DNA of 64,000 nucleotides from assembly GCF_000255295.1 (NCBI RefSeq), contig NC_017030.1:8096328-8160327 (forward strand). Direction: 5' to 3'. This document shows, piece by piece, positions 8,432-28,013 of this stretch. This DNA comes from Corallococcus coralloides DSM 2259. GTDB taxonomy: Bacteria; Myxococcota; Myxococcia; Myxococcales; Myxococcaceae. Both the position numbers and the translations under genes were made by a program. The notes beneath the pieces are model-generated. The model searched no databases. It saw nothing but the letters and a program-made list of their open reading frames with translations, and was not told where the DNA came from. The stretch's first letter is position 1. Every line of letters begins with the position of its first letter.

Positions 8432-8627
8432 CCCCTGCGCACGTGGACCGCAACAACTCCACGGTGCGCGCATGGAAGCCCCGGGCGCGGGGATGGAGCG
8501 AAGTGCCCGCGTGCTTCTCGATGATCCGCGAGCGCACGCCCTGGTGGGCGAGGAACAACGCCGTCGAGAGGCCCACGAGGCCACCTCCGACGATGAGCAC
8601 CTGAGGCTGCGAGGAAGGGGCTTGCAT
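8432..8627 (-). pseudogene. 5' remnant of an FAD-dependent monooxygenase
   Basis: From ATG at 8627 the peptide shows the flavoprotein hydroxylase dinucleotide fold: PQVLIVGGGLVGLSTALFLA (GxGxxG) at about 9-28, an acidic strand end IIEKH, and HPRARGFHARTVELLR, which matches the conserved segment after the FAD fold in aromatic-ring hydroxylases. Full-length members have 400-550 residues; here recognisable sequence stops after about 65 and the frame runs into unrelated protein. The catalytic GD motif and substrate domain are absent, so this is a truncated remnant left by a deletion. Confidence 0.65.
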
Positions 8628-8668
8628 GCCCGGACACATAGGTCCCCGCGCACCGCGTCCAGGCTTCT

Positions 8669-9292
8669 TCAGCCGCCGGACTGACGGCCTTCAATCGCGC
8701 ACAGGAGCACCGCCGCGGCGATTCCCAGACGCCGATCCAACCGGCGCTGCGTGTCCACGGAGAAGTCCAGGTCGATCTTCTGGATGAACGGGTTGAAGTG
8801 CTGCTTGAAGCTGAACACCTGATCGCTGCCCAGGGTCCCGGTGAAGGTCTGCGGGATGAGGTTGGTGAGGAAGCGCCGCACGAGCGCCAGCAGCATGCTG
8901 TCCTCCTCCACCTTGCCCACCTCCTGCCCGTCCGCGTCCAGGATGAGCCAGGTGTCGCGAAGGATGGAGCTCAGGGCCTTGCGGCGCAGCGCGCCCACGC
9001 GCTCTCCGGTCGCCGCGTCGGTGACGTCGTAGGTGGCGCCGAAGTCCAGGATGCTGCGGGCCTGGATGGTGATGAGCTCCTCCTGCATGTCCTCGCCGCT
9101 GTAGACGCGCAGGTCCTCCTTCAGCTTGAAGGCCTTCATCTTCGAGTAGAAGGCGACGTTGCCCGCCTCGTCGTAGATGTGGAACGCGCCGCCGAAGATC
9201 TTGAAGAACTTGCGGCGGAGCATGTAGCGGGGCTGGCCGAAGCGCCCGGAGGCAAGCTCACTCCGGGGACGGGTCTGGAGGGCGGAGGACAT
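8669..9292 (-). CDS. LURP-one-related / scramblase-like protein
   Basis: A 207-residue protein with the LURP-one-related (tubby-like beta-barrel) pattern: MLRRKFFKIFGGAFHIYDEAGN at the first strands, then repeated short strands such as SKMKAFKLKEDLRVY and ALRRKALSSILRDTW, and a hydrophobic C-terminal helix at about 185-200 (LGIAAAVLLCAIEG). The C-terminal helix resembles the membrane-attaching helix of tubby/scramblase-like folds. Bacterial members have no established function; binding to membrane lipids is a guess. It follows the gene at 9334 by 41 bases on the same strand. Confidence 0.7.
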   Translation of the reverse strand: MSSALQTRPRSELASGRFGQPRYMLRRKFFKIFGGAFHIYDEAGNVAFYSKMKAFKLKEDLRVYSGEDMQEELITIQARSILDFGATYDVTDAATGERVGALRRKALSSILRDTWLILDADGQEVGKVEEDSMLLALVRRFLTNLIPQTFTGTLGSDQVFSFKQHFNPFIQKIDLDFSVDTQRRLDRRLGIAAAVLLCAIEGRQSGG

Positions 9293-9333
9293 GACTCCCT
9301 CCCTAGCGCGAAGCGGCCCGCGGAGCCAGGGAC

Positions 9334-10137
9334 CTAGGGAATGCCCTGCTGCTGCTTGCTCTTCGCCACGAGCTCCTGGGCCTTGGCGTGGATGTTGTCG
9401 AACTGCGTGCGGTAGACGTCCGAGTGGCTCTTGCCCGTCTTCGCGTCCGGGACGTTCTGGCGCGCCCAGTAGCTGTCGAAGCTGGGGTCCGCGCCCTCCA
9501 GCCGCTTGCCGAACCGGTCCATCTCCTTGGGCCAGCCCTGGTTCTGGATGCCGTCCTTCATCACCTCATGGTGGCGCTTGATGCCGTCGTACTCGATGCG
9601 CTCCATGCTCTTGGCGAAGTTCTCCCGCCGGGCGTTCAGGTCCCCGCCGAAGGCCGGCTTGCCCAGCGCCGCGTTGACCTCGTTCTGGAAGGCGTCGCCC
9701 GTGACCTTGCTGAACTTCTTCTGCTGGGCCGCGTTCGTCATCTCGAAGGCCATGACGCCGGCGCGCTTGGGGCCCGTGAGGTCCGGCCGCAGGCCAATCT
9801 GCTTCGGGCCCGCGTAGAACATGCCGCCCTGGACCTGGTCCTTGGTGATGACGTTGAGGGTCTTGCCATCGGACGCCTGCGAGGCGTCGTTCGCCAGCGC
9901 CGCGTACTTCGGATTCTTCAGCATCTCCTCGTGCGCCATCTTGTCGTAGGCGGCGTGCATGGAGGGGTCCGTGGGCGGCTTCTGCACCTGCTGCTGCGGC
10001 AGGGTCTCCTGGGTCCGCTGCTTCTTCGCCGGGGGCCCTTCCGCCACCGGCTTGCGGATGGGCGAGGTGAGCTCGTCGTGCTTGCGCTTCGGCGGCAGCG
10101 AGGGGCCAGAGCCTGCTTTGAAGATGCCACGGGGCAT
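9334..10137 (-). CDS. Hypothetical protein with Pro/Gln-rich N-terminus
   Basis: The ATG at 10137 is chosen because AGGAG lies about nine bases before it, giving 267 residues rather than the longer open frame. Residues 1-75 are low-complexity and rich in Pro, Lys and Gln. The rest is mixed helical, with AFEMTNAAQQKKFSKV and FAKSMERIEYDGIKRHHEVM as the most protein-like blocks. A similar blend of MAFEM/NA and ERIEYDGI(K/R) segments occurs, as far as I recall, in domains found near secreted or polymorphic toxins, but I cannot name the family securely. No signal peptide or membrane span. It lies between the glutathione transferase and the LURP-one gene, all on the minus strand. Confidence 0.6.
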   Translation of the reverse strand: MPRGIFKAGSGPSLPPKRKHDELTSPIRKPVAEGPPAKKQRTQETLPQQQVQKPPTDPSMHAAYDKMAHEEMLKNPKYAALANDASQASDGKTLNVITKDQVQGGMFYAGPKQIGLRPDLTGPKRAGVMAFEMTNAAQQKKFSKVTGDAFQNEVNAALGKPAFGGDLNARRENFAKSMERIEYDGIKRHHEVMKDGIQNQGWPKEMDRFGKRLEGADPSFDSYWARQNVPDAKTGKSHSDVYRTQFDNIHAKAQELVAKSKQQQGIP

Positions 10138-10997: not shown

Positions 10998-12911
10998 ATG
11001 GGCACCGCACGGAGCCACGCCTCATGGCTCACCCGCGTCAGTCCCTTCGCCGCTTCACTGAGGGGCTATGACAGGAGGCGGCTGAAGAAGGACGTGGTGG
11101 GGGCGCTCACGGTGACGGCGCTGCACATCCCGGAGGGCATGGCCTACGCGCAGCTGGCGGGGATGCCTCCGCAGGCGGCGCTGTACTCCACCCCGGCGGC
11201 GCTGGCGTTGTATGCGCTGTTCGGCAGCTCGCGGCAGCTCATCATCGCGGTGTCCGCCAGCGTGTCGGTGCTCTCCGCCGCCACGGTGGGCGCGATGGCG
11301 CAGCAGGGCACGCCGCGCTTCATGGCGCTCACGGCGGCGCTGGCGCTGATGGCGGGAGCGGTGGCCACGCTGGCGGGCGTGCTGAAGCTGGGCCGCGTCG
11401 CGCAGTTCTTCTCCTCCTCCGTGTTGAGCGGCTTCGTGTTCGGGCTGGCGCTCATCATCGCCATCAAGCAGGTGCCCAAGCTGCTGGGCATCGAGGGCGC
11501 GAAGGGCGGCTTCTTCGAGCGGCTGGGCTACCTCCTCACGCACCTGGGCCAGACGCATGCGCTGACGCTCGCGGTGGGGGCGGCGAGCATCGCGGCGCTG
11601 CTGCTCCTGGGGCGCGTGTCCCGGCGCATTCCGGCGGCGCTCGCGGTGTTGGTGCTGGGCATCGCGGTGTCGTCGCTGTTGCATCTGGATGCGAAGGGGG
11701 TGGCCATCGTGGGGCACATCCCCGCGGGCCTGGTGCCGCCCCAGCTTCCGGAGGTGGAGCTCGGCGACCTGGCGAAGCTGTTGCCGGGCGCGTGCGGCAT
11801 CGCGCTGGTGGCGTTCGCGGAGGCCATTGGCCCGGCGCGCATGTTCGCCGCGAAGCACGGCTACGAGGTGGACCCCAACCGCGAGCTGGTGGGCCTGGGC
11901 GCGGCGAACCTGGGCGGAGGTCTGTTCCGGGGCTTCAGCATGGGGTGCAGCCTGTCCAAGTCCGCCGCGAATGATCAGGCGGGGTCCACCACGCAGGTGT
12001 CCTCGCTGGTGACGGCGGGGCTGACGCTGCTGGTGGCTCTGTTCCTCACCGGCCTGTTCCGCACGCTGCCGGAGGCCACGCTGGGGGCCATCGTGGTGGT
12101 GGCCATCCTGGGGATGATGGACGTGAAGGAGCTGGTGCGGCTGGCGCGCCTGCGCCGCGCGGACTTCCTGGGAGCGGCGGTGGCGCTCGTGGGCGTGCTG
12201 GCCTTCGACGTGTTGCCCGGGCTGCTCATCGCGGTGGGCCTGTCGCTGTTCCTCACGGTGTACCGAGCCAGCCGGCCGCGCCTGAGCGAGCTGGGGCGGG
12301 TGCCGGGGACGCTGGACCTGGCGGCCACGCACCGAGAGGCCTCCGCCATCACCCTGCCCGGCCTGGAGGTCTTCCGGCCGGAGGAAGGGCTGTTCTTCGC
12401 CAACGCGACATCCCTGAGGGACGAGGTGCTGAAGCGCGTGGGCGACGCGAAGGTGCCGGTGCGCGAGGTGTTGCTGGACCTGGAGCTGACGGACGACCTG
12501 GACGTGCCGGGAGCGGACATGCTGGCGGGACTGCACGAGGACCTGTCGAACCGGGGCATCACCTTGTCACTGGCGCGCGTGCACGCACCGGCGCAGCGGC
12601 TGCTGGAGCGCACGGGCGTGCTGGCGAAGATGGGAAGGCAGAACGTGTATCCGCACGTGCGTGAAGGGGTGGAGGCGTGGATGGCGCGCCACGAATCCCA
12701 GGCCTGGCAGGAGTGGCGCCTCATCCAGGACGGTCTGTACCTGGTGCGCTCGCGCGTGGACGAAGCGGGCGCGCTGCTGCACGGAGAGGAGCGGCACCGG
12801 CAGGAGGACCTGCTCATCCGGCTGGATGAGGCGGACACGCGCATGCGCGAGCTGCTGCGGAACCTGCCGCATCCTCCGGCCGATGATGACTCGCGGGGGC
12901 CCGTGCACTGA
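10998..12911 (+). CDS. SulP-family anion transporter with STAS domain
   Basis: A 637-residue permease of the SLC26/SulP family (sulfate, bicarbonate or other anions). The N-terminal domain starts with the family signature DVVGALTVTALHIPEGMAYAQLAG and has 10-14 membrane segments; the conserved GLFRGFSMGCSLSKSAAN segment (about 310-327) belongs to the anion-binding half. A STAS domain follows at about 445-560 with EVLLDLELTDDLDVPGADML. About 70 extra residues after the STAS domain, rich in charged helix, are unusual. A second SulP lies at 20185. The substrate is not determinable; sulfate is plausible given the nearby sulfatases. Confidence 0.9.
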   Translation: MGTARSHASWLTRVSPFAASLRGYDRRRLKKDVVGALTVTALHIPEGMAYAQLAGMPPQAALYSTPAALALYALFGSSRQLIIAVSASVSVLSAATVGAMAQQGTPRFMALTAALALMAGAVATLAGVLKLGRVAQFFSSSVLSGFVFGLALIIAIKQVPKLLGIEGAKGGFFERLGYLLTHLGQTHALTLAVGAASIAALLLLGRVSRRIPAALAVLVLGIAVSSLLHLDAKGVAIVGHIPAGLVPPQLPEVELGDLAKLLPGACGIALVAFAEAIGPARMFAAKHGYEVDPNRELVGLGAANLGGGLFRGFSMGCSLSKSAANDQAGSTTQVSSLVTAGLTLLVALFLTGLFRTLPEATLGAIVVVAILGMMDVKELVRLARLRRADFLGAAVALVGVLAFDVLPGLLIAVGLSLFLTVYRASRPRLSELGRVPGTLDLAATHREASAITLPGLEVFRPEEGLFFANATSLRDEVLKRVGDAKVPVREVLLDLELTDDLDVPGADMLAGLHEDLSNRGITLSLARVHAPAQRLLERTGVLAKMGRQNVYPHVREGVEAWMARHESQAWQEWRLIQDGLYLVRSRVDEAGALLHGEERHRQEDLLIRLDEADTRMRELLRNLPHPPADDDSRGPVH

Positions 12912-14681: not shown

Positions 14682-16340
14682 ATGGCAAGCAAGGCGAAGC
14701 CCTCGGGCAATGGACACGGCAAGCAGGCGAAGCAGAAACCCAACATCCTGGTCATCTGGGGAGATGACATCGGCTTCTGGAACATCAGTGCCTACAACCA
14801 GGGGATGATGGGCTACCGCACGCCCAACATCGACCGCATCGCGAAGCAGGGCGCGATGATGACCGACTGCTACGGCCAGCAGAGCTGCACCGCGGGCCGC
14901 GCGGCGTTCATCACCGGTATGAATCCACTGCGCACGGGGCTCACCACCATTGGCATGCCCGGCGCCAAGTACGGCCTGCAGGACTCCGACCCCACCATCG
15001 CGGAGATGCTCAAGCCCCTGGGCTACACCTGCGGCCAGTTCGGCAAGAACCACCTGGGCGACTCCAATCCCTACCTGCCCACGAACCACGGCTTCGACGA
15101 GTTCTTCGGCAACCTCTACCACCTCAACGCGGAGAACGAGCCGGAGTGCCCGGACTACCCCAAGGACCCGTCCTTCAAGGCCCGCTTCGGGCCGCGCGGC
15201 GTGCTGCACAGCTGGGCCACGAACCGCAAGGACGTCACCGACGAGCCGCGCTGGGGCGTGGTGGGCAGCCAGCGCATCGAGGACACCGGCCCGCTCACCA
15301 CGAAGCGCATGGAGACGGTGGACGGTGAGTTCCTGAAGGGGTCGCTGGACTTCATGGAGCGCGCCGTGAAGGACGGCAAGCCGTTCTTCGTCTGGCACAA
15401 CACCACGCGCACGCACGTCTGGACGTTCCTCCAGAAGAAGTACCAGAACGCCACGGGCCACGGCCTCTACGCGGACGCGATGCGGGAGCTGGATGACATC
15501 GTCGGCGTGCTCCTGGACAAGCTGGAGGAGCTGGGCATCGCGGACAACACCCTGGTGGTCTTCTCCACCGACAACGGCGTGGAGAAGATGGGCTGGCCGG
15601 ACGGCGGCAACAGCCCGTTCCGCGGCGAGAAGGGCTCGACGTGGGAGGGCGGCGTGCGGGTGCCGTGCGTGGTGCGCTGGCCGGGCGTGGTGGAGCCGGG
15701 GCGCGTCATCAACGACATCTTCGCGCACGAGGACTGGATGCCCACGATGGTGGCAGCGGCGGGTGGCCCCACGGACCTGGTGGAGAAGTGCAAGCACGGC
15801 CACAAGGTGGGGAACAAGACCTTCCGGGTCCACCTGGACGGGTATGACCAGAGCGGGCTCCTGGCCGGCACGGAGGAGGGCCGCCGGAACGAGTTCATCT
15901 ACGTGCTCGACAGCGGCGACCTCGCGGCGGTCCGGTACAAGGACTGGAAGATCATCTTCAGCTACCAGGACGGCGAAGGCCCGGACATGTGGTTCAGCGG
16001 CAAGCGCTTCAATCCGGCGTGGCCCTACCTCATCAACCTGCGCTCGGATCCGTTCGAGTACGGCCCCCACTCCGGCCTGTACACGTCCTGGTACGGCCAG
16101 CGCATGTTCACGTTCGTCCCGGCGCAGATCCTGGTGAAGCAGTTCGCGGAGAGCCTCATCGAGTTCCTGCCCAGCCAGGCCCCGGGCAGCCTGAGCATCG
16201 GGCCGATGAAGGAGCGCGTGAAACAGCAGCTGGCGGAGGCGCGAAAGAAGAAGGCGGAGCCCAGCGTCGGCGACCAGGTCATGTCCCTGGCCAACGAGGT
16301 GGAGCACCTCATCCACCGCGTCCAGCAGTCGCACCAGTAG
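14682..16340 (+). CDS. Sulfatase (arylsulfatase family), cytosolic
   Basis: A 552-residue formylglycine-dependent sulfatase that hydrolyses sulfate esters. Residues seen: metal-binding Asp28-Asp29 (WGDDIGFWN), Cys69 in CTAGR (the residue oxidised to formylglycine), FGKNHLGD (Lys and His), HNTTRTH, STDNG and FRGEKGSTWEGG (Lys). The start is ATG 14682, six bases after AGGAGG; an upstream GTG at 14664 is less likely. The N-terminus is Lys/Gly-rich with no signal peptide, so the enzyme appears cytosolic. The activating enzyme lies 121 bases downstream, and a colinear paralogue is at 26514. Natural substrate unknown. Confidence 0.93.
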   Translation: MASKAKPSGNGHGKQAKQKPNILVIWGDDIGFWNISAYNQGMMGYRTPNIDRIAKQGAMMTDCYGQQSCTAGRAAFITGMNPLRTGLTTIGMPGAKYGLQDSDPTIAEMLKPLGYTCGQFGKNHLGDSNPYLPTNHGFDEFFGNLYHLNAENEPECPDYPKDPSFKARFGPRGVLHSWATNRKDVTDEPRWGVVGSQRIEDTGPLTTKRMETVDGEFLKGSLDFMERAVKDGKPFFVWHNTTRTHVWTFLQKKYQNATGHGLYADAMRELDDIVGVLLDKLEELGIADNTLVVFSTDNGVEKMGWPDGGNSPFRGEKGSTWEGGVRVPCVVRWPGVVEPGRVINDIFAHEDWMPTMVAAAGGPTDLVEKCKHGHKVGNKTFRVHLDGYDQSGLLAGTEEGRRNEFIYVLDSGDLAAVRYKDWKIIFSYQDGEGPDMWFSGKRFNPAWPYLINLRSDPFEYGPHSGLYTSWYGQRMFTFVPAQILVKQFAESLIEFLPSQAPGSLSIGPMKERVKQQLAEARKKKAEPSVGDQVMSLANEVEHLIHRVQQSHQ

Positions 16341-16351
16341 CCGTCCAGGCC

Positions 16352-16388
16352 GTCGGGCCGTGGAGCGCCCATTCCTCCACTGCCCGAC
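16352..16388 (+). terminator. Strong hairpin after the first sulfatase
   Basis: GTCGGGC-C-GTGGAG pairs with CTCCAC-T-GCCCGAC across a nine-base loop, thirteen base pairs with one internal mismatch, twelve bases after the sulfatase stop. No T-run follows, so it may be a terminator, mRNA-stabilising element or processing site between sulfatase and FGE genes. Confidence 0.45.
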
Positions 16389-16461
16389 ACCCTTCCTGTT
16401 CCCCGGTGCGAGTGTCATTCCCCGCGCCGGGCCGGATGTTCTCCGTTGGAGGCTTCAAGCC

Positions 16462-17463
16462 ATGCATCGGAATGACAGCCGTGACGCCGCTCCCGACGTG
16501 GAGTCCACGGACACCGCCGCGCGCCCCGGCCGTGCTCCGTTTCCAGACATGGTCTGGATTCCCGGCGGCACGTACTGGATGGGCTCCGACCATCACTATC
16601 CCGAAGAGGCCCCCGCGCATCAGGTGACCGTCTCCGGCTTCTGGATGGACCGCTTCACCGTGACGAACGAACAGTTCGCCCGCTTCGTCGAAGCCACCGG
16701 TTACGTCACCGTCGCCCAGCGCCCCCTCAATCCCGCGGACTATCCCGGCGCCACACCGGAGACGCTCGTCCCCGGCTCGCTCGTCTTCCAGAAGCCCCAA
16801 GGCCCCGTGGACCTGGGCAACGTGGCCAACTGGTGGGGCTATGTCCCCGACGCCTGCTGGAAGCACCCCGAAGGCCGCCGCTCCTCCGTGAAGCACCGCC
16901 GCGACCACCCCGTCGTCCACATCGCCTTCGAGGACGCGGCGTCCTATGCGGCCTGGGCCGGCAAGGACCTCCCCACCGAGGCGGAGTGGGAGCGCGCCGC
17001 TCGCGGCGGCCTGGACCGCAACGAGTTCTGCTGGGGCAATGACTTCACCCCCAACGGCGAACACCTGGCCAACACCTGGCAGGGCTACTTCCCGTGGCAG
17101 AACCTCCGCGAGGACGGCCACGAAGGCACCTGCCCCGTCGGCGCCTTCCCGCCCAATGGCTACGGCCTGCATGAGATGACCGGCAACGTCTGGGAATGGA
17201 CCACCGACTGGTACCAGGCGCGCCACCAGGGCAACAAAGGCAAGGCGTGCTGCATCCCCGTCAACCCGCGCGGCCCCGCCACCGAGCACGGCAGCCAGGA
17301 CCTGTTCACCTCCGCCATCACCATTCCCCGCCGCGTCCTCAAGGGCGGCAGCCACCTGTGCGCACCCAACTACTGCCGCCGCTACCGCCCCGCCGCGCGC
17401 TCGCCCCAGGCCGTGGACAGCGGCGCCAGCCACATCGGCTTTCGCTGCATCGTGCGCCCGTAG
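16462..17463 (+). CDS. Formylglycine-generating enzyme (SUMF1/EgtB/PvdO family)
   Basis: A 333-residue protein that oxidises the CTAGR cysteine of sulfatases to C-alpha-formylglycine. The family core runs from MVWIPGGTYWMGSD through FTVTNEQFARFV, LPTEAEWERAARGG and MTGNVWEWTTDWY to GGSHLCAPNYCRRYRPAARS and GFRC. The redox/copper cysteine pair C-x4-C is at Cys300 and Cys305, as in active FGEs, so it is not one of the many inactive SUMF-like proteins. The start at 16462 follows GGAGG. There is no signal peptide, consistent with the cytosolic sulfatases. It lies directly behind one sulfatase gene, strongly implying that pair, and probably also serves the one at 26514. Confidence 0.93.
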   Translation: MHRNDSRDAAPDVESTDTAARPGRAPFPDMVWIPGGTYWMGSDHHYPEEAPAHQVTVSGFWMDRFTVTNEQFARFVEATGYVTVAQRPLNPADYPGATPETLVPGSLVFQKPQGPVDLGNVANWWGYVPDACWKHPEGRRSSVKHRRDHPVVHIAFEDAASYAAWAGKDLPTEAEWERAARGGLDRNEFCWGNDFTPNGEHLANTWQGYFPWQNLREDGHEGTCPVGAFPPNGYGLHEMTGNVWEWTTDWYQARHQGNKGKACCIPVNPRGPATEHGSQDLFTSAITIPRRVLKGGSHLCAPNYCRRYRPAARSPQAVDSGASHIGFRCIVRP

Positions 17464-17466
17464 CCG

Positions 17467-18732
17467 CTACGCGCGGCCGGCGCTCGGAGGAACCGGCGAG
17501 CCCCGGTCCACGAAGTCGCGCGGAGGCACCACCACCGTGGCGAACACCAGCCCCAGCACCAGCTGGAGCGCCACCAGCAGCACGTTGAACAGCCGGGCGT
17601 CCTCCGCGCCCGCGCCGAGCAGCGCGACGATGGCCTCCGTGCCGATGAAGCCCGGCGTCAGCTGCAACATCCCCGGCATGATGACCGTCATGGGCATCCG
17701 GTCCCTCCCGCGTCCGTAGAGCAGCCCCGCCACGCCCAGCACGAACGCGGCCACCATCGGGCTGCCCCGGTCCCCGAGCAGCAGCTTCGCCACCGCCTGC
17801 GTCTCGTAGGCGAGCAGCACCCCGCCGACAATCCATGCCACGTCGCGCGGTCGCCCCGACATGCACACCGCCAGCGCCACCCCGCCCACCGCCATCAGGA
17901 AGAACGTCAGGAGTGGCGGCAGCGCGTGCGCCTCGAAATGCGGCGGCAGCGGCCATGCGAACTCCCAGAGCGTCCCCGCCGCCGCGATGCCCACGCCCAG
18001 CATCAGGAAGCGCAAGAGGCCGTACATGAGCCGGGGCAGGCCTGCCTCCACCGACTCCATGGCCAACTCCAGCGAGCCCAGCGTCACCACCGTCGCGGGC
18101 ACCAGCAGCACCACCCCGCCGTACAGCGCCCGCACGATGTTGAAGGGCGGCAGGAGGAACGAGAACCCGAACGCCACCAGTGTCCCCAGGAACGCGGCGA
18201 GGAAGCCCTTCTGCAGATCCACTCGATGCGAGTTCAGCATGCCGAAGTGGATGCCCCCCACGATGACGCCCACGCAGAAGGCCACGAGCATCTCCCACCA
18301 CACCCCGCCCACCCGCGCCGCCACCGCCGCGCCATAGACGCCGTAGGCCACGAACACGAGCCACTCGGGATAGGGCGCGTGCGTGGTCAGGATGCGGTCC
18401 AGCTCCGCGCGGGCCTCGGGCAGCCGCACGCGTCCTTCGGGGATGGCTTCCGCCAGCCGCAGGAGCGCCGCGGCCCGGCCCAGGTTCCAGTGCGGGTCGA
18501 AGGGCAGCCTCTCGAAGGACACGTGCGTGCTCCGCGGTGACACCACCTCCGTCATCGCCAGGCTCTGGAGCGTGAAGACCTCCACGTCCAGCCCCCACGC
18601 CTTCGCCGCCCGGCGCACGCGCGCCTCCACCAGCAGCGACGGCTGGTAGGCCAGGTGCAACGCCTTCGCCAGGTCCAGCAGGAAGGCGGAGGCCGCCTCC
18701 TCGTCCAACGCGCCGTCGTGCCTTGGCGTCAT
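17467..18732 (-). CDS. Threonine/serine exporter ThrE family protein
   Basis: A 421-residue inner-membrane protein of the ThrE (YjjP/YjjB fused) family, which exports threonine and serine. An N-terminal cytosolic domain of about 130 residues (FLLDLAKALHLAYQPSLLVE, GLDVEVFTLQSLAM) precedes about ten hydrophobic segments. The repeat half contains GVIVGGIHFGML and LQLTPGFIGTEAI. Its ATG overlaps the stop of the outer-membrane protein gene (ATGA), so the two are translationally coupled. It ends three bases from the end of the convergent FGE gene. Family call is solid; substrate range is inferred. Confidence 0.85.
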   Translation of the reverse strand: MTPRHDGALDEEAASAFLLDLAKALHLAYQPSLLVEARVRRAAKAWGLDVEVFTLQSLAMTEVVSPRSTHVSFERLPFDPHWNLGRAAALLRLAEAIPEGRVRLPEARAELDRILTTHAPYPEWLVFVAYGVYGAAVAARVGGVWWEMLVAFCVGVIVGGIHFGMLNSHRVDLQKGFLAAFLGTLVAFGFSFLLPPFNIVRALYGGVVLLVPATVVTLGSLELAMESVEAGLPRLMYGLLRFLMLGVGIAAAGTLWEFAWPLPPHFEAHALPPLLTFFLMAVGGVALAVCMSGRPRDVAWIVGGVLLAYETQAVAKLLLGDRGSPMVAAFVLGVAGLLYGRGRDRMPMTVIMPGMLQLTPGFIGTEAIVALLGAGAEDARLFNVLLVALQLVLGLVFATVVVPPRDFVDRGSPVPPSAGRA

Positions 18733-20180
18733 GGAGAGTCCGCCTTGGGGACTTCCTCCACGGCGCCCTTGCCGCTCGTGGCCTTCGAGTCCTTGAACGA
18801 GAAGCTGGCGCCCACCAGCAGCGTGGCCTGGAAGAAGTGGACGTCCTGGGTCCGCATGGGGGCGGACAGGCCCAGTTGCTGGAGCGTCTCCGCGAAGCGA
18901 GCGGTCTGCTTGCTTCCCCACGCCAGGTCGCCGCCCAACGTGAAGCGGGAACGGCCCAGCACGAAGTGGATGCCCGAGGCCAGGTGGTACAGGTCCCAGC
19001 CCCCGACCAGCGCGTTCGTCGCGTGCGTCTGATCCAACGCACTGAAGTCCGTGTGCCCGCTCAAATACACCCGCACCCGGTCCCCCAGCGCCTGCTCCAC
19101 GCCCAGCGCCCCGTTGAGCAGCGGCTTGAGCGCGAAGGCGTAGTCCCCGTTGAGGACCTCGGTGGTGCCGCGCGGCACGATGGGCCCGGCGTCCACCAGG
19201 GTGATGGACGAGACGCGCGCGTAGCCCTCCAGGGACGCGTACACCGCGGTCGACTCGCCGAAGCTCCGGCTGACGCCGAGCGCCGCGGACCAGGAGTTGC
19301 GGAAGTGCGCCGGCAGGTCCTCCTGGAAGTCGAACACGGGCGCGGGCGCGTTCGTGTCCACCCCCTGGGAGAGGACGGCGCGCTCGAACCCCACCGAGCC
19401 CCGGCCCCAGAGCGACAGGCTCGGCGTCGTCACGGTGAGCCCCACGGCCCAGGGGCCGTGCTGGTAGCTGGCGCCCAGCTTCAACAGCACCCGCACGTGG
19501 TCGAACTCCAGGTCGCGGCCCAGGGTCGCCAGCAGCTGCTGTCCGGCGGCACCGGAGCCCTGCGCCTGCGTCTGGAAGCGCAGCTCGTGATGCCGGGTCG
19601 CGACGAACGGCGTCAGGCCCAGGCCCAGGTGCTCCGTGACGGGGTAGGCCCAGGAGAGGCCCGTCCAGAACTCGCTCACGGTCTGGTCCAGCCGCACGTC
19701 CGTGGACAGCGAGTCCAGGCCCTGCACGCCGGCCAGGTCCGTGCCCGGCCGCGTGCCACGCGACTGCAGGCTGTAGGAGAAGCCCTGGCGCGTGAGCAGC
19801 GAGTAGGCCATCCGGGACTTCCCCAGGAACCCGAAGCGCAGCGAGCCGGCGATCAACGACGGCAGCACGTCCACGTTGGAGTCGGACAGGTCCTTCCCCT
19901 GGCCCTGCCCGTCCTTCACCTTCAGGCGCGTGTATTCGTACACGCTGCCGGTGAGCTCCAGCTCCGGCGCCCCCAGGAGCGCGAGCGCGCCGGGGTTGTA
20001 ATAGACGGCGCTGATGTCGTTCGGGTTGCCCACGAAGGCGCCGCCCAACAGCCACGCCCGGTTGCCGAACTGCCGCGTGGTGTAGTGCGCGTCCTGCGCC
20101 AGCGCCGGCACGGACAGCAGCAGTCCCAGCACCGCGCCCGTCACCGCGCCCACTCGGGCCTTGGATTGGATTGGCGTCAT
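18729..20180 (-). CDS. Outer-membrane beta-barrel protein, OMPP1/FadL/TodX-like
   Basis: A 483-residue protein with a Sec signal peptide (VGAVTGAVLGLLLSVPALAQ) and a mature sequence starting DAHYTTRQFGNRAWLLGGAF. The block NPNDISAVYYNPGALALL is the hallmark N-terminal NPA-like region of FadL/OMPP1 transporters for hydrophobic compounds; the remainder alternates as amphipathic strands. The C-terminal tail is charged rather than ending in an aromatic residue. It begins four bases after the SulP gene and overlaps ThrE, forming SulP-OMP-ThrE. The start at 20180 gives the signal peptide. The ligand is unknown. Confidence 0.75.
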   Translation of the reverse strand: MTPIQSKARVGAVTGAVLGLLLSVPALAQDAHYTTRQFGNRAWLLGGAFVGNPNDISAVYYNPGALALLGAPELELTGSVYEYTRLKVKDGQGQGKDLSDSNVDVLPSLIAGSLRFGFLGKSRMAYSLLTRQGFSYSLQSRGTRPGTDLAGVQGLDSLSTDVRLDQTVSEFWTGLSWAYPVTEHLGLGLTPFVATRHHELRFQTQAQGSGAAGQQLLATLGRDLEFDHVRVLLKLGASYQHGPWAVGLTVTTPSLSLWGRGSVGFERAVLSQGVDTNAPAPVFDFQEDLPAHFRNSWSAALGVSRSFGESTAVYASLEGYARVSSITLVDAGPIVPRGTTEVLNGDYAFALKPLLNGALGVEQALGDRVRVYLSGHTDFSALDQTHATNALVGGWDLYHLASGIHFVLGRSRFTLGGDLAWGSKQTARFAETLQQLGLSAPMRTQDVHFFQATLLVGASFSFKDSKATSGKGAVEEVPKADSP

Positions 20181-20184
20181 GGCG

Positions 20185-21942
20185 TCAGTGCACCTGTGGC
20201 GAGGAGACGGACTCGCCGCTCCAGGCGGTCCGCGCGTCGTCTCGCGATTCGAGGTAGGCGCGAACGGCCGCGCCCACGGTAGGAAAGAGCCGGTCCTCGC
20301 CAATCCGCGCGGCCAGTCCGGAGCGCTTCAACGTCCGGCGCATCGGCGCGCGCGCCTGGGCCACGGCGAAGACGAGGCCTTCGTCCGTGAGGTCGTGGCG
20401 CACCTTCTCCAGGCTCTCCGCCGCGGTGATGTCCAGGTCGAACACGCTGGACGCGTCCAGCACGAACCACCGCACCGGGTGGCGCGAGTCAGCCACCAGC
20501 CGGTGCACCTGTTCGCGCAGGAAGCGGGCGTTGGCGAAGAAGAGGGGCGCGTCGAAGCGGTAGACGACGAGTCCGGGAATCGTCTCCGCGTCCGCGTGGC
20601 CCTCCACGTCGTGCCAGCCGGGCATGCCCTCGCGCTCGCCCAGCACGGCGTCGTGCGGGTGCGCCGCGCGGCGGATGAGGTCCACCAGCGACAGCGCCAC
20701 CGCGATGAGGATGCCATGGAGGATGCCCAGGAAGAGCACGCCCAGCATCGTCACCACCGCGAGCACCGCCTCCACCGGCCGCACGCGCCAGAGCCGGAGG
20801 ATGGGCTTCACCTCCAGCAGGTACACCGCCGCGACGATGACGATGGCCCCCAGCGTCACCAGCGGCAGCTTCGACAGCAGTGGCGTGAGGAACAGCGAGA
20901 ACAGCAGCACCACCCCGGCCGCGACCACGCTGACGAGCTGCGTGCGGCCCTTCATGGACGCGTTGACCGCCGTGCGCGAGTCGCTCCCCGTCACGGGGAA
21001 GCCCTGCGTGAGGCCGGTGAGCAGGTTGGCCGCCGCCTGACCGAAGAACTCCTGATGGGTGTCCAGCCGGTAGCCGAAGCGGTCCGCGTAGATGCGGCCC
21101 GCGAGCACGGAGCTGGCGTAGTTCACCAGCGCGAGGCTGAAGGCCGCGGGCAGGAGCGTGCGCACGTCGTCGAAGCGCAAGGAGGGCAGGCCGAAGGTGG
21201 GCGCCGCCGCGGCGATGGGCCCCACCACCTTCACGCCGCCGTGCTCCAGTTGGAACGCCCAGGTCACCAGCGTGGTGAGCACCACCATCACCAGCGGCGC
21301 GGGCCAGCGCGGCAGGAAGCGGCGCATGGCCACCAGCGCCGCGACGATGCCCAGCCCCAACACCAGCGTGGGCACGTGCGTGCGGCCCACGTTCGCCGCC
21401 ACCTCATGCAGCTGCCCCGCGAACTCGTTCGACCTGCGCTCCAGCCCGAGCATCCGGGCCAGCTGGCTGCCGATGATGATGAGCGCCGCGCCGTTGACGT
21501 AGCCGATGAGGATGGGCCGCGACAGGAAGTCCGCCAGCGCCCCCGCGCGGCACAGTCCGCACAAGAAGCTCACGACGCCCACCATCAACGCCAGGAGCGC
21601 CGCCAGCGAAGCCAGCCGCTCCGGTCCTCCGCCCGCCACCACGGGGCCCAGCGCCGTCGCGGTGAGGATGGCCGCGCCCGCCTCCGGCCCCAGCATGAGG
21701 TGGCGCGACGGACCGAACAGCGCGTACGCCAGCATCGCGAAGACGCCCGCGTACAGCCCCGCCACGGGACGCACGCCGACAATCTGCGCGTAGGCCAGGC
21801 CCTGGGGAATGAGCATCGCGCCCACGGTGATCGCCGACAGGACGTCCGCGCGCAGCCACCGCCGCTCGTAGGTCCGCGCCTGCTCGACGCCCGGGAGGAA
21901 GCGGTCCAGGACATGAGCGGCCGTGGCCGTGGTGCGCTTCAT
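20185..21942 (-). CDS. SulP-family anion transporter with STAS domain
   Basis: A 585-residue SLC26/SulP permease. Signature DVLSAITVGAMLIPQGLAYAQIVG sits at the first helices, GLTQGFPVTGSDSRTAVN in the transport core, and a STAS domain at about 440-560 includes the block IPGLVVYRFDAPLFFANARFL and WFVLDASSVFDLDITAAESL. GGAAGG precedes the ATG at 21942. It is closer to typical SulP size than the paralogue at 10998, which has a C-terminal extension. It heads a tight SulP-OMP-ThrE run. The transported anion is unproven; sulfate, bicarbonate and dicarboxylate are all known in the family. Confidence 0.9.
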   Translation of the reverse strand: MKRTTATAAHVLDRFLPGVEQARTYERRWLRADVLSAITVGAMLIPQGLAYAQIVGVRPVAGLYAGVFAMLAYALFGPSRHLMLGPEAGAAILTATALGPVVAGGGPERLASLAALLALMVGVVSFLCGLCRAGALADFLSRPILIGYVNGAALIIIGSQLARMLGLERRSNEFAGQLHEVAANVGRTHVPTLVLGLGIVAALVAMRRFLPRWPAPLVMVVLTTLVTWAFQLEHGGVKVVGPIAAAAPTFGLPSLRFDDVRTLLPAAFSLALVNYASSVLAGRIYADRFGYRLDTHQEFFGQAAANLLTGLTQGFPVTGSDSRTAVNASMKGRTQLVSVVAAGVVLLFSLFLTPLLSKLPLVTLGAIVIVAAVYLLEVKPILRLWRVRPVEAVLAVVTMLGVLFLGILHGILIAVALSLVDLIRRAAHPHDAVLGEREGMPGWHDVEGHADAETIPGLVVYRFDAPLFFANARFLREQVHRLVADSRHPVRWFVLDASSVFDLDITAAESLEKVRHDLTDEGLVFAVAQARAPMRRTLKRSGLAARIGEDRLFPTVGAAVRAYLESRDDARTAWSGESVSSPQVH

Positions 21943-22059
21943 GGCCCTTCCCCCCGTGTGCCTGGCCTCCCGAACGCAAGGAAGGGTGGAGGCCCCCGGG
22001 CCCCACGGCATCACCCACGGAGGTGCGTTGCGCGCATCGGCTTCACGACAGGAAGGGGC

Positions 22060-22962
22060 TCACGTGCCCGTGGAGGCCCGCCTGCCCGACGGCAGTGACG
22101 GCCCGCCGCCGCGCTCGGACGCCTGGTGGCGCTGGTTCCAGAGCAGGTACGGCACCATGGCCGCGGTGCGGATGAAGAGGTACAGCCCCATGACGCCCAG
22201 CAGGCTCTTCATGGGATAGGTGCTGCCGCCCAGGCAGAAGGCGAAGGCGGGGTTGCCGAAGACGGCGGAGATGGCCAGCGCCGTGCGGTCCCCGGGCCGG
22301 GGCCGGCCGGCGATGTGGCCCAGGGCCGTGGACCCCAGCGTCACCACCACCATCGCGATGAACACCCAGACGTGGAGGCGCTTCAACAGCGGGAAGCTGG
22401 CCACGACCAGCGCCAGCGCGGCCACGGCCACGGCGAAGGTGAAGTAGAGCTTCACCGGCTTGCGCAGCCGGTGCGCCCAGGCGGGCGCCACCTTCTGGAT
22501 TCCGATGCCGAGCGCGAAGGGCATGAGGAACGGGAGGATGACCCGCTCCAGGAGCACCCCGTATGGCGGTGACTGGATGGCCAGGGGGAACAGTTGCTCC
22601 AGCAGCTTCAGGGACAGCGGCATCAGCACGATGGCGACGAGCGACAGGGTGATGGACAGCGCCAGGGCCAGCGGCAGGTTGCCCTTCTGCTGCGACACGA
22701 CGTTGAGCGCCATGGGCAGCCCCGGGCAGAAGGCCATCAGCGCGATGACGCCCGCCGCGACAGGGGCGAGGGGCAGCACCTTCACCACGATGAGGGACAG
22801 CAGCGGTACACCGACGAGGCACACCCCCAGCCCTCGCGCGAACGCCGGCTGCTTCACGCCCTGGCCCAGGTCCGCCAGATGCCACGACAGGCCCTGCGAC
22901 AATCCGAGCGCGATGATGAAGGTCGAAATCATCAGCCCGATGAAGGCATGCAAGGCGTCCAT
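22060..22962 (-). CDS. Bile acid:sodium symporter-like (BART superfamily) transporter
   Basis: A 300-residue protein with nine to ten hydrophobic segments and an early helix pair with GLSQGLSW. The layout, with FCPGLPMALNVVSQQKGNLPLALALSITL in the middle and VFGNPAFAFCLGG near the end, resembles SBF/BASS-type Na+-coupled transporters. ATG at 22962 overlaps the stop of the phosphatase gene (TGATG) and follows GGAGGAGGG, so it is preferred over the GTG one codon earlier. Coupling to a secreted phosphatase hints at uptake of a dephosphorylated product, which is speculative. Confidence 0.7.
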   Translation of the reverse strand: MDALHAFIGLMISTFIIALGLSQGLSWHLADLGQGVKQPAFARGLGVCLVGVPLLSLIVVKVLPLAPVAAGVIALMAFCPGLPMALNVVSQQKGNLPLALALSITLSLVAIVLMPLSLKLLEQLFPLAIQSPPYGVLLERVILPFLMPFALGIGIQKVAPAWAHRLRKPVKLYFTFAVAVAALALVVASFPLLKRLHVWVFIAMVVVTLGSTALGHIAGRPRPGDRTALAISAVFGNPAFAFCLGGSTYPMKSLLGVMGLYLFIRTAAMVPYLLWNQRHQASERGGGPSLPSGRRASTGT

Positions 22963-23954
22963 CACCGTCCCTCCTCCGGGAAGATGCGCTTCCAGTCCTG
23001 GCGCATGCTGACCACGGTCCAGCCGCCTTCATGCGCGGCCTTCAGGGAAGCGTCGTTCTTCTCCTGGTAGGCGAACTCGCGCTCCGCGTCGTCATGGTTG
23101 ATGAGCAACGAGAAGCCGGGGCGCGGCTGCTCCTTCGTGTATTGGAGCATCTGGATGTCACCGCCCGACCGGACGTTGCCCGCGGCGAACACGGGCCTCC
23201 GCCCGATGTGCTGCTCGATTCCCACCGGCTTGCCGGCCTTGTCGTTGACGTGGTCCAGGCGGGCCTCGCGCCGCAGCACCGGGTGGCCGTTCCCCTCGTC
23301 GAACTTCTCCTTGAGGTCGCTGCCGATGACCTGCTGGGGCGGGATGCCGTAGGTGTCCTCGGAGACGACGCGCATGAAGTCGGTGCCGCCGCCCGAGGAG
23401 ATCCACGTCTGGAAGCCATTGGCGCGCAGGTACCGGAGCAGCTCCAGCATGGGCGCGTAGGCAAGCTGCGTGTACGGCACGCCCAGCTTCGGGTGGCGCG
23501 CGGTCTGGAAGAAGGCGCGGGCCTCGCGGGCGAGCTCATCCGGCGTCTTGCCCGCGTGGGTGGCGGCGACCAGCGCCATCAACTGGGGCTCCTCCATGGA
23601 GGACAGCAGGGCCACGTCTCCTTCCAGCACGGCCTTGAAGGGCTGCCGCTTCGCGAGCGACGCGTCCTCCTTCACGGCCGCCTTGACCTGCTCCAGCAGG
23701 AAGGCGCCCTGCACGACAGGCTTCTCCTGCCAGAGCGTGCCGTCGTTGTCGAAGGTGGCGATGCGCTCCTCCGGGGGGATGTAGCCGGGGCCGTCCTCGG
23801 TGGTGGCGCGGGTGACGAAGTCGATGATGGACTGTTTCACCGGGCCGTCATTCCAGGACGGCAGCGGATCCGCCGCCAGTGCCTGGAGGGGGATGGCGAG
23901 CAGCAACGCCAGCGCCCACGGCAGGCAGGCCGGGCCCTTCCTCGTGCGTCGCAT
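22962..23954 (-). CDS. Exported HAD-superfamily phosphatase
   Basis: A 330-residue hydrolase with a clear Sec signal (LPWALALLLAIPLQALAADP). The HAD nucleophile motif is FDNDGTLW (Asp69, Asp71), motif II is WISSGGGTDF, and the acidic motif IV region reads GNVRSGGDIQML, where the first Asp is replaced by Asn. The closest familiar group is the phosphoserine-phosphatase-like HAD branch. After signal cleavage it would act in the periplasm. It is coupled by a TGATG overlap to the symporter gene. The substrate is unknown. Confidence 0.82.
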   Translation of the reverse strand: MRRTRKGPACLPWALALLLAIPLQALAADPLPSWNDGPVKQSIIDFVTRATTEDGPGYIPPEERIATFDNDGTLWQEKPVVQGAFLLEQVKAAVKEDASLAKRQPFKAVLEGDVALLSSMEEPQLMALVAATHAGKTPDELAREARAFFQTARHPKLGVPYTQLAYAPMLELLRYLRANGFQTWISSGGGTDFMRVVSEDTYGIPPQQVIGSDLKEKFDEGNGHPVLRREARLDHVNDKAGKPVGIEQHIGRRPVFAAGNVRSGGDIQMLQYTKEQPRPGFSLLINHDDAEREFAYQEKNDASLKAAHEGGWTVVSMRQDWKRIFPEEGR

Positions 23955-26513: not shown

Positions 26514-28013
26514 ATGGCGACGAAGCCCGCGAAGAAGAAGCAGCCCAACATCCTGGTCATCTTCGGAGACGACATCGGCTACTGGAACCTCAGCGCCTAC
26601 AACCTGGGCGTCATGGGCTACCGCACGCCGAACATCGACCGCATCGCGAAGGAGGGCGCGCTCTTCACCGACTACTACGCCCAGCAGAGCTGCACCGCCG
26701 GCCGCGCGGCCTTCATCACCGGCCAGTGCCCCTTCCGCACGGGCCTCACCAAGGTCGGCATGCCGGGCGCGAAGGTCGGCCTCCAGCCGGAGGACCCCAC
26801 CATCGCGGACCTGGTGAAGCCGCTGGGCTACCGCACCGGCCAGTTCGGCAAGAACCACCTGGGCGACCGCGACGAGTTCCTGCCCACCGTGCACGGCTTC
26901 GACGAGTTCTTCGGCAACCTCTACCACCTCAACGCGGAGGAGGAGCCGGAGAACGTGGACTACCCCAAGGACCCCGCGTTCCGGCAGCACTTCGGCCCGC
27001 GCGGCGTGCTCAAGAGCAAGGCGGACGGCAAGGGCGGCCAGACCGTGCAGGACACCGGGCCGCTGACGAAGAAGCGCATGGAGACCGTGGACGAGGAGTT
27101 CCTGGCCGCGACCCTGGACTTCATCGACCGCACGCAGCAGGAGCAGAAGCCCTTCTTCATCTGGTTCAACACCACCCGCATGCACATCCACACGCACCTG
27201 AAGAAGGAGTCCCAGGGCAAGACGGGCATCGGGCTCTTCCCGGACGGCATGGTGGAGCACGACGGCCACGTGGGGCGGCTACTGGACAAGCTGGACCAGC
27301 TGGGCATCGCGGACGACACCATCGTCATCTACACCACCGACAACGGCGCGATGTCGAGCATGTGGCCGGACGGCGGCGTGACGCCGTTCCGCGGCGAGAA
27401 GGACACCAACTGGGAGGGCGCGTTCCGGGCCCCGTGCGTCGTGCGCTGGCCCGGCGTCGTGAAGCCCGGCACGCAGTTCAACGAGCTGTTCTCCTCCGAG
27501 GACTGGCTGCCCACGCTGGTCGCCGCCGCGGGCGAGCCAGACATCGTGCAGAAGCTGCTCGACGGCCATGACGCGGGCGACAAGCACTTCAAGGTCCATC
27601 TGGATGGCTATGACCAGACGGCGCTGCTGTCCGGCCAGTCCCAGGAGTCCAAGCGAGAGGAATTCTACTACTTCGGCGACGACGGCGAGCTGGTCGCCAT
27701 GCGCTACAAGCGCTTCAAGCTCGTCTTCGAGGAGCAGAACGCCAGGGGCATCGAGGTGTGGTCGCAGCCCTTCACCACCCGCCGCGTCCCGCTCATCTTC
27801 GACCTGCGCGCGGATCCGCTGGAGCGCTCCGAGGACTCCGTCGGCTACTTCTCCTGGATGGTCGACCGCGCCTTCGTCTTCGTCCCCGCGCAGGCCATGG
27901 TGGGCCGGTTCCTGGCCACCTTCCGGGAGTTCCCGTCGCGCCAGCACCCGTCCAGCTTCTCCATCGACCAGGTGATGGCGACGATGGAGAACGGCGCCAC
28001 CCCCGTCCACTGA
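26514..28013 (+). CDS. Sulfatase (arylsulfatase family), cytosolic paralogue
   Basis: A 499-residue sulfatase closely colinear with the enzyme at 14682. Metal Asp19-Asp20 (FGDDIGYWN), formylglycine Cys60 in CTAGR, FGKNHLGD, FNTTRMH, TTDNG and FRGEKDTNWEG are all present. It is about 50 residues shorter, lacking the paralogue's long N-terminal and C-terminal extensions, and the central lid between GPRGVL and DTGPLT is shorter. There is no signal peptide; GGAG sits nine bases before the ATG at 26514. It has no FGE of its own, so activation by the enzyme at 16462 is likely. A strong hairpin follows the stop. Confidence 0.93.
   Translation: MATKPAKKKQPNILVIFGDDIGYWNLSAYNLGVMGYRTPNIDRIAKEGALFTDYYAQQSCTAGRAAFITGQCPFRTGLTKVGMPGAKVGLQPEDPTIADLVKPLGYRTGQFGKNHLGDRDEFLPTVHGFDEFFGNLYHLNAEEEPENVDYPKDPAFRQHFGPRGVLKSKADGKGGQTVQDTGPLTKKRMETVDEEFLAATLDFIDRTQQEQKPFFIWFNTTRMHIHTHLKKESQGKTGIGLFPDGMVEHDGHVGRLLDKLDQLGIADDTIVIYTTDNGAMSSMWPDGGVTPFRGEKDTNWEGAFRAPCVVRWPGVVKPGTQFNELFSSEDWLPTLVAAAGEPDIVQKLLDGHDAGDKHFKVHLDGYDQTALLSGQSQESKREEFYYFGDDGELVAMRYKRFKLVFEEQNARGIEVWSQPFTTRRVPLIFDLRADPLERSEDSVGYFSWMVDRAFVFVPAQAMVGRFLATFREFPSRQHPSSFSIDQVMATMENGATPVH

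What the first reader, a model, noticed from the sequence alone, without database searches (positions are those of the whole stretch)
17467..21942. SulP-outer-membrane-protein-ThrE run with tight coupling
Four bases separate SulP from the FadL-like protein, and an ATGA overlap joins that to the ThrE exporter. Coupling an inner-membrane exporter to an outer-membrane barrel suggests a joint export or uptake path across both membranes.
Basis: partly seen in the sequence, partly recalled or inferred. Interest (0 to 1): 0.5.

Follow-up and report, generated by a model that had tools for sequence, protein, structure and literature searches.

The report
Coupled transporters inside sulfatase gene cluster
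Three back-to-back membrane-transport genes in a soil predator bacterium really are one tightly coupled unit, but they belong to a gene cluster around sulfate-cleaving enzymes; the outer-membrane member has shrunk away in some relatives while its neighbours stay, so it is not a fixed two-membrane pump.

Summary
On the minus strand lie SulP (21942-20185), a 4-nt gap, a weakly FadL-like outer-membrane protein, OMP (20180-18729), an ATGA overlap, and a ThrE-family protein (18732-17467). In 13 of 13 Corallococcus loci that could be read, the SulP/OMP gap is 4-5 nt and the OMP/ThrE overlap 4 nt.

Three Corallococcus genomes have reduced the OMP to in-frame remnants of 179, 72 and 42 codons, while SulP, ThrE and both junctions remain. 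One g41 genome shows the reverse: OMP intact, ThrE frameshifted. What ThrE keeps is a sulfatase or its maturation enzyme FGE within 10 kb: 41 of 42 loci, against 0 of 7 for a ThrE paralogue.

Best reading: a co-translated transport cassette serving a sulfatase-FGE-HAD module, probably for sulfate-ester use. Substrate and transport direction are inferred. The in-frame remnants suggest, without proving, that the OMP frame is kept as a translational bridge to ThrE.

The parts
20185..21942 (-). SulP1: SulP-family anion transporter with C-terminal STAS domain
   Evidence: PF00916 1.4e-92, PF01740 3.1e-16, TIGR00815 above cut-off
20181..20184 (-). 4-nt SulP1/OMP gap; weak Shine-Dalgarno before the OMP start
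   Evidence: gap 4 nt in 12 and 5 nt in 1 of 13 Corallococcus loci; anti-SD duplex energy -3.0 to -3.8 kcal/mol in all 13
18729..20180 (-). OMP: weakly FadL/OMPP1-like outer-membrane protein with Sec signal (by eye) and FadL-type YYNPG motif (recalled)
   Evidence: PF03349 below cut-off; hhalign to FadL family 68%, residues 24-111; no PDB relative by sequence
18729..18732 (-). ATGA stop/start overlap of OMP and ThrE
   Evidence: 11 of 13 loci ATGA, 2 of 13 GTGA
17467..18732 (-). ThrE: ThrE-superfamily inner-membrane protein of a sulfatase-locus subfamily
   Evidence: PF06738 4.1e-40; sulfatase or FGE within 10 kb in 41 of 42 loci
16360..17463 (+). FGE: formylglycine-generating (sulfatase-maturing) enzyme, convergent with ThrE, 3 nt apart (true start uncertain)
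   Evidence: PF03781 1.9e-82; PDB 6s07 1e-75 with both active-site cysteines aligned (run from 16447, which is not a start codon; motif)
14682..16340 (+). SulfA: cysteine-type sulfatase, C69-T-A-G-R, no signal peptide seen by eye
   Evidence: PF00884 3e-47 (scanned from 14664); PDB 7aj0 2.2e-60
26514..28013 (+). SulfB: second cysteine-type sulfatase, C60-T-A-G-R
   Evidence: PF00884 2e-48 (scanned from 26310); PDB 7aj0 3.6e-58
22060..22965 (-). SBF: bile-acid:sodium-symporter-like inner-membrane protein
   Evidence: PF01758 1.6e-08 above cut-off; TIGR00841 4.6e-10 but below its cut-off
22962..23954 (-). HAD hydrolase with N-terminal signal (by eye), overlapping SBF
   Evidence: PF12710 1.9e-11; relatives lie near arylsulfatase genes in 6 of 6 plasmid regions inspected for it
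11013..12911 (+). SulP2: second SulP/STAS transporter of the cluster (start uncertain)
   Evidence: PF00916 8.5e-95; near ThrE in several related loci

Best explanation
SulP1-OMP-ThrE is a co-translated transport cassette that serves a chromosomal sulfatase module (two cysteine-type sulfatases, FGE, exported-looking HAD hydrolase, SBF-like permease, two SulPs). Proposed working: a small, probably aromatic or hydrophobic sulfate ester crosses the outer membrane through the FadL-like OMP or by other routes; SulP1, SulP2 or SBF carry it or released sulfate across the inner membrane; FGE-activated sulfatases in the cytosol remove sulfate; ThrE moves an organic product or counter-solute out. OMP and ThrE are translated by ribosomes that finish the preceding gene. 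The OMP is a dispensable accessory; ThrE is tied to the sulfatase module. Shown: family identities, junctions, conservation, the ThrE-sulfatase/FGE link, loss of the OMP. Inferred: substrate, direction of transport, cytosolic site of hydrolysis (no signal peptide seen), coupling by reinitiation.
For: 41 of 42 ThrE-subfamily loci have a sulfatase or FGE within 10 kb (36 of 42 a sulfatase, 21 FGE, 25 HAD, 27 a SulP, 19 an SBF relative, some only about 30% alike; several contigs are short); the one exception, G009, is a 6.2-kb contig that ends inside ThrE; 0 of 7 paralogous ThrE loci have any of these (loci). HAD relatives lie near arylsulfatase in 6 of 6 and FGE in 4 of 6 plasmid regions inspected; in Methylobacterium nodulans an outer-membrane barrel of another family (PF13557, 5.7e-53) is the next gene upstream of FGE-arylsulfatase-HAD. 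FGE keeps its catalytic cysteines; the sulfatases are cysteine-type, which a review (PMC3920027, passages) calls typically cytosolic. Junctions kept in 13 of 13 loci. The last 15 nt of an upstream gene suffice for reinitiation in two E. coli pairs (PMC10666635, section 7).
Against: No substrate, expression or mutant data. The families carry diverse solutes (E. coli yjjPB is called a succinate exporter, PMC10717943 passages; that it is a ThrE relative is recalled). OMP is only weakly FadL-like and its structure prediction failed (pLDDT 25). Neighbourhood does not prove a common pathway: a Vibrio plasmid arylsulfatase 61% like SulfA has no annotated FGE, HAD or transporter of these kinds within 10 kb (the plasmid gene tables are incomplete). 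SulfA/SulfB carry CTAGR, not the C-x-P form. OMP and ThrE evolve faster than SulP1 (median pairwise dN/dS 0.55, 0.41, 0.36).
Confidence: 0.5

Rival explanations
1. Joint export conduit: ThrE and OMP form one export or uptake path across both membranes for an amino acid.
For: Conserved ATGA/GTGA overlap; linked OMPs one clade in two genera; overlaps are enriched among genes for subunits of complexes (PMC10666635 abstract).
Against: OMP reduced to remnants in G007, G009, G014, with no intact copy found elsewhere there (E 1e-5, 1e-8); ThrE of G007 against G014 still constrained (pairwise pN/pS 0.21, dN 0.045, dS 0.244); ThrE broken beside an intact OMP in G136; 29 of 42 ThrE loci lack an intact adjoining OMP.
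Confidence: 0.12
2. Ordinary operon of unrelated transporters: tight packing without a shared substrate, next to sulfatases by history.
For: 4-nt overlaps are common here (3 of 37 same-strand pairs) and in prokaryotes generally (PMC10666635 section 9); neighbours of ThrE vary between genera.
Against: The ThrE-sulfatase/FGE link holds across three genera while gene order is reshuffled; control paralogue 0 of 7.
Confidence: 0.28
3. Sulfate homeostasis: SulP1/SulP2 and ThrE export excess sulfate and a counter-ion produced by sulfatases acting on prey glycans or lipids; OMP takes up the remaining aglycone.
For: Two SulP genes in the cluster; predatory lifestyle of the genus (recalled).
Against: No evidence for direction of SulP or for glycan substrates; no carbohydrate-uptake family among the neighbours scanned.
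Confidence: 0.1

Closest known systems
ThrE family (PF06738; C. glutamicum ThrE; E. coli YjjPB as relative, recalled)
   Same: PF06738 match over the whole profile
   Different: 25.7 bits against NCBI equivalog cut-off 550; sits in sulfatase loci; substrate unknown
SulP/SLC26 transporters
   Same: Transport and STAS domains, TIGR00815 above cut-off, solved relatives
   Different: Placed 4 nt ahead of an outer-membrane protein gene; substrate untested
FadL/OMPP1/TodX outer-membrane channels (PF03349)
   Same: Signal peptide (by eye) and N-terminal YYNPG region align with FadL proteins
   Different: Below Pfam cut-off; similarity limited to residues 24-111; the genome has a separate true PF03349 protein
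Arylsulfatase-HAD(-FGE) gene clusters on plasmids of Alphaproteobacteria and Caballeronia
   Same: HAD with arylsulfatase in 6 of 6 regions, FGE too in 4 of 6; one has an outer-membrane barrel gene beside them
   Different: No ThrE relative found on plasmids at E 1e-5; other neighbours, such as MoxR/VWA/BatD genes in Azospirillum
Pseudomonas ats arylsulfatase system (recalled; atsA rise under sulfur starvation in a passage of PMC12581299)
   Same: Cysteine-type sulfatase used for sulfate esters
   Different: Uses an ABC importer and TonB receptor (recalled), not SulP/ThrE/FadL-like proteins

Membership tests
ThrE threonine/serine exporter (equivalog) | Passes NCBI equivalog cut-off (550 bits) | tested here: not met
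   25.7 bits
ThrE superfamily (PF06738) | Passes Pfam cut-off over the domain | tested here: met
   138.2 bits against 26.3
ThrE superfamily (PF06738) | Exports threonine/serine or another small acid | not testable with these tools
   needs transport assay
SulP/SLC26 | Sulfate_transp core plus STAS domain | tested here: met
FadL/OMPP1 (PF03349) | Passes Pfam cut-off | tested here: not met
   11.7 bits against 29.7; 6 of 11 members hit, best E 0.0013
FadL/OMPP1 (PF03349) | FadL barrel fold | tested here: inconclusive
   model pLDDT 25; hhalign 68% over residues 24-111
FGE-dependent type I sulfatase module | Cysteine-type sulfatase with neighbouring FGE that keeps its two cysteines | tested here: met
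FGE-dependent type I sulfatase module | Proline after the modified residue (C-x-P core; C-x-P-x-R recalled, motif in PMC3920027 passage) | tested here: not met
   both carry CTAGR; P replaced by A
FGE-dependent type I sulfatase module | Sulfatase activity | not testable with these tools
   needs assay

The most novel reading that the evidence does not exclude
The middle gene of the cassette is being eroded only by in-frame deletions because its reading frame is needed as a translational bridge: SulP1 ribosomes must be carried through a residual OMP frame to reach the ATGA start of ThrE. The 179-, 72- and 42-codon remnants would then be coupling peptides, gene relics selected for the act of being translated and not for their product.
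Probability: 0.3. Interest if true: 0.6.

Novelty: new variant of a known kind. Interest (0 to 1): 0.4.

Why it matters
It assigns a recognisable context, sulfatase loci, to a ThrE subfamily whose substrate is unknown, which makes that substrate testable. It also offers a natural series of operons in which one gene has shrunk to different lengths while both coupling junctions are kept, a direct test of whether translational coupling itself is under selection.

Tried and rejected
Structure of OMP: AlphaFold2 with four close sequences gave pLDDT 25 and was discarded; no fold search was run. PDB sequence searches with OMP and ThrE, single and profile, gave nothing. The promoter/terminator scan found no promoter-like site and fewer terminator-like sites than shuffles; Rfam gave nothing. 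A SulP1 protein tree was spoiled by one row read in a wrong frame (G003) and is not used; a nucleotide tree of the HAD-SBF-SulP1 block replaced it (11 genomes, G003 and G011 and the three without this arrangement left out). The idea that weak Shine-Dalgarno sites show dependence on coupling holds for the OMP start in 13 of 13 loci but not clearly for ThrE, whose sites range from -4.5 to -8.9 kcal/mol. dN/dS values are crude Nei-Gojobori estimates in a GC-rich genome. Ten paper searches, judged by their listings and the few passages and sections I opened, showed no description of a ThrE-sulfatase link or of coupling-preserving remnants; the library is open-access only.

Full report
What is there. 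The window lies in a 10.08-Mb single-contig genome; the three named relatives found, at 83-90% OMP identity, are Corallococcus. On the minus strand run SulP1 (21942-20185), a 4-nt gap, an outer-membrane protein, OMP (20180-18729), a 4-nt ATGA overlap and a ThrE-superfamily protein (18732-17467). SulP1 and ThrE superfamily assignments are secure. OMP is FadL-like only weakly: 11.7 bits for PF03349 against a cut-off of 29.7, 6 of 11 relatives match PF03349 and 1 of 11 YadA_anchor, and a profile comparison with FadL-family proteins from this order aligns residues 24-111 at 68% probability. The structure prediction failed.

Upstream on the same strand are an SBF-like permease and an exported-looking HAD hydrolase that overlap each other, then CorA-like and unassigned proteins; on the plus strand, converging on ThrE with 3 nt between, is FGE, preceded by sulfatase SulfA and, further up, a second SulP; a second sulfatase, SulfB, lies on the other side. 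FGE keeps both catalytic cysteines. Both sulfatases are cysteine-type (CTAGR) with no signal peptide visible by eye.

Is the coupling more than chance? In this window 3 of 37 same-strand neighbour pairs overlap by 4 nt, this one included, so one overlap means little. Its conservation means more: in all 13 Corallococcus loci where SulP1 and the start of ThrE could be read together (10 with intact OMP, 3 with remnants; 16 genomes of the genus held), the SulP1/OMP gap is 4 nt (12) or 5 nt (1) and the next junction is a 4-nt overlap, 11 ATGA and 2 GTGA. Of the other three genomes, G005 and G015 have ThrE without OMP and G002 has no such ThrE.

Pairing beyond the genus. Of 195 genomes of the phylum searched, 35 match the OMP profile at E 1e-8; 18 carry a full-length relative, the other 17 only remnants or short partial matches. 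OMP adjoins ThrE in 10 Corallococcus and 3 g41 genomes (G127, G133, G136) and is unlinked in G032, G112, G129, G130, G135 and a second copy in G136; a broken second copy in G133 was left out of the tree. In a tree of 19 OMPs the 13 linked ones lie on one side of a branch with support 100/100 (midpoint root), consistent with one origin of the pair. In the g41 genomes G127 and G133 the two genes are about 150 nt apart, not overlapping.

Dissociation. In G007, G009 and G014 the OMP is a remnant of 179, 42 and 72 codons, each open in one frame from the conserved start to the conserved ATGA; no intact OMP was found elsewhere in them. Breakpoints differ, and in a nucleotide tree of HAD-SBF-SulP1 the intact G012 is sister to G009 (99.8/100), with G014 (62.9/70) and G007 outside, so at least two and probably three separate deletions are needed unless G012 regained the gene. 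All three keep frame and none touches SulP1 or ThrE; by chance three independent deletions would keep frame 1 time in 27, two 1 time in 9. ThrE of G007 against G014 has pairwise pN/pS of 0.21, while closely related OMP-bearing pairs such as G000/G006 show 0.79, so ThrE is not visibly more relaxed without the OMP. Conversely G136 has an intact OMP beside a ThrE split over three frames; assembly error is not excluded there.

What ThrE is tied to. Of 53 genomes with a ThrE match at E 1e-20, 42 carry this subfamily. A sulfatase or FGE lies within 10 kb in 41 of the 42 loci; the exception, G009, is a 6.2-kb contig ending inside ThrE. Three of the 42 are contig halves (G003, G004, G008) and one, G134, holds only about 70 residues of ThrE. 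For the paralogous ThrE (24-30% identity), 7 of the 11 genomes that have only that copy were examined: 0 of 7 show a relative of the sulfatases, FGE, HAD, SBF, SulPs, OMP, AsmA-like, CorA-like or unassigned neighbour proteins within 10 kb; second copies in the other genomes were not examined. Neighbours change: OMP here; HAD directly in G131, G137, G138, G146-G148 and G150; SBF-HAD in G032 and G112; SulfB, mostly with the AsmA-like gene, in G126, G129, G130, G132 and G141-G144. Outside the phylum, HAD relatives were found on 220 plasmid records; in the six regions inspected an arylsulfatase lies near in 6 of 6 (Microvirga, Methylobacterium, Azospirillum, Sinorhizobium, Rhizobium, Caballeronia) and FGE in 4 of 6, not in Sinorhizobium or Rhizobium. 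A seventh region, Vibrio, chosen through SulfA, shows an arylsulfatase alone. In Methylobacterium nodulans an outer-membrane barrel of another family, PF13557, is the next gene upstream of FGE-arylsulfatase-HAD. No ThrE relative was found on plasmids at E 1e-5.

Mechanism. Best supported: a transport cassette co-translated by termination-reinitiation and devoted to a sulfatase module; the steps for solute identity and direction are inference. [quoted passage not shown] coli pairs (PMC10666635, abstract and section 7); 13 of 14 tested overlapping pairs were strictly coupled (PMC6728339, abstract). The OMP start has a weak Shine-Dalgarno site in all 13 loci. This fits remnants kept as a translational bridge, but three events are few, and relaxed loss with lucky frames remains possible; in the four genomes G007, G009, G012 and G014 ThrE also has a fair Shine-Dalgarno site of its own (-8.9 kcal/mol), which weakens the need for a bridge.

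Verdict. Observation confirmed; conserved gene run confirmed; joint ThrE-OMP conduit not supported as an obligate system; function best placed in sulfate-ester metabolism, confidence 0.5.

Noticed in passing
G007, G009, G014 between SulP1 and ThrE (about L094:8258-8800, L095:400-535, L100:10617-10840): OMP shrunk to in-frame remnants (179, 42, 72 codons) that keep both junctions.
   Followed up: yes
ThrE residues about 135-146 (window about 18295-18330): Assemblies of G003, G004, G008 and G009 all have a contig end in this part of ThrE, suggesting a stretch that is hard to sequence.
   Followed up: no
window 21943-22059: SBF-SulP1 gap holds an inverted repeat GGCCTCC...GGAGGCC seen by eye, partly kept in related loci; possible regulator site.
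   Followed up: no
G136 (L151, about 8536-9800): ThrE split over three frames beside an intact OMP.
   Followed up: partly
L192 and L195 (Azospirillum and Caballeronia plasmids): FGE, HAD and sulfatase sit with MoxR/DUF58/VWA/BatD genes in Azospirillum (names from the record); Caballeronia has a similar layout of unnamed genes.
   Followed up: no
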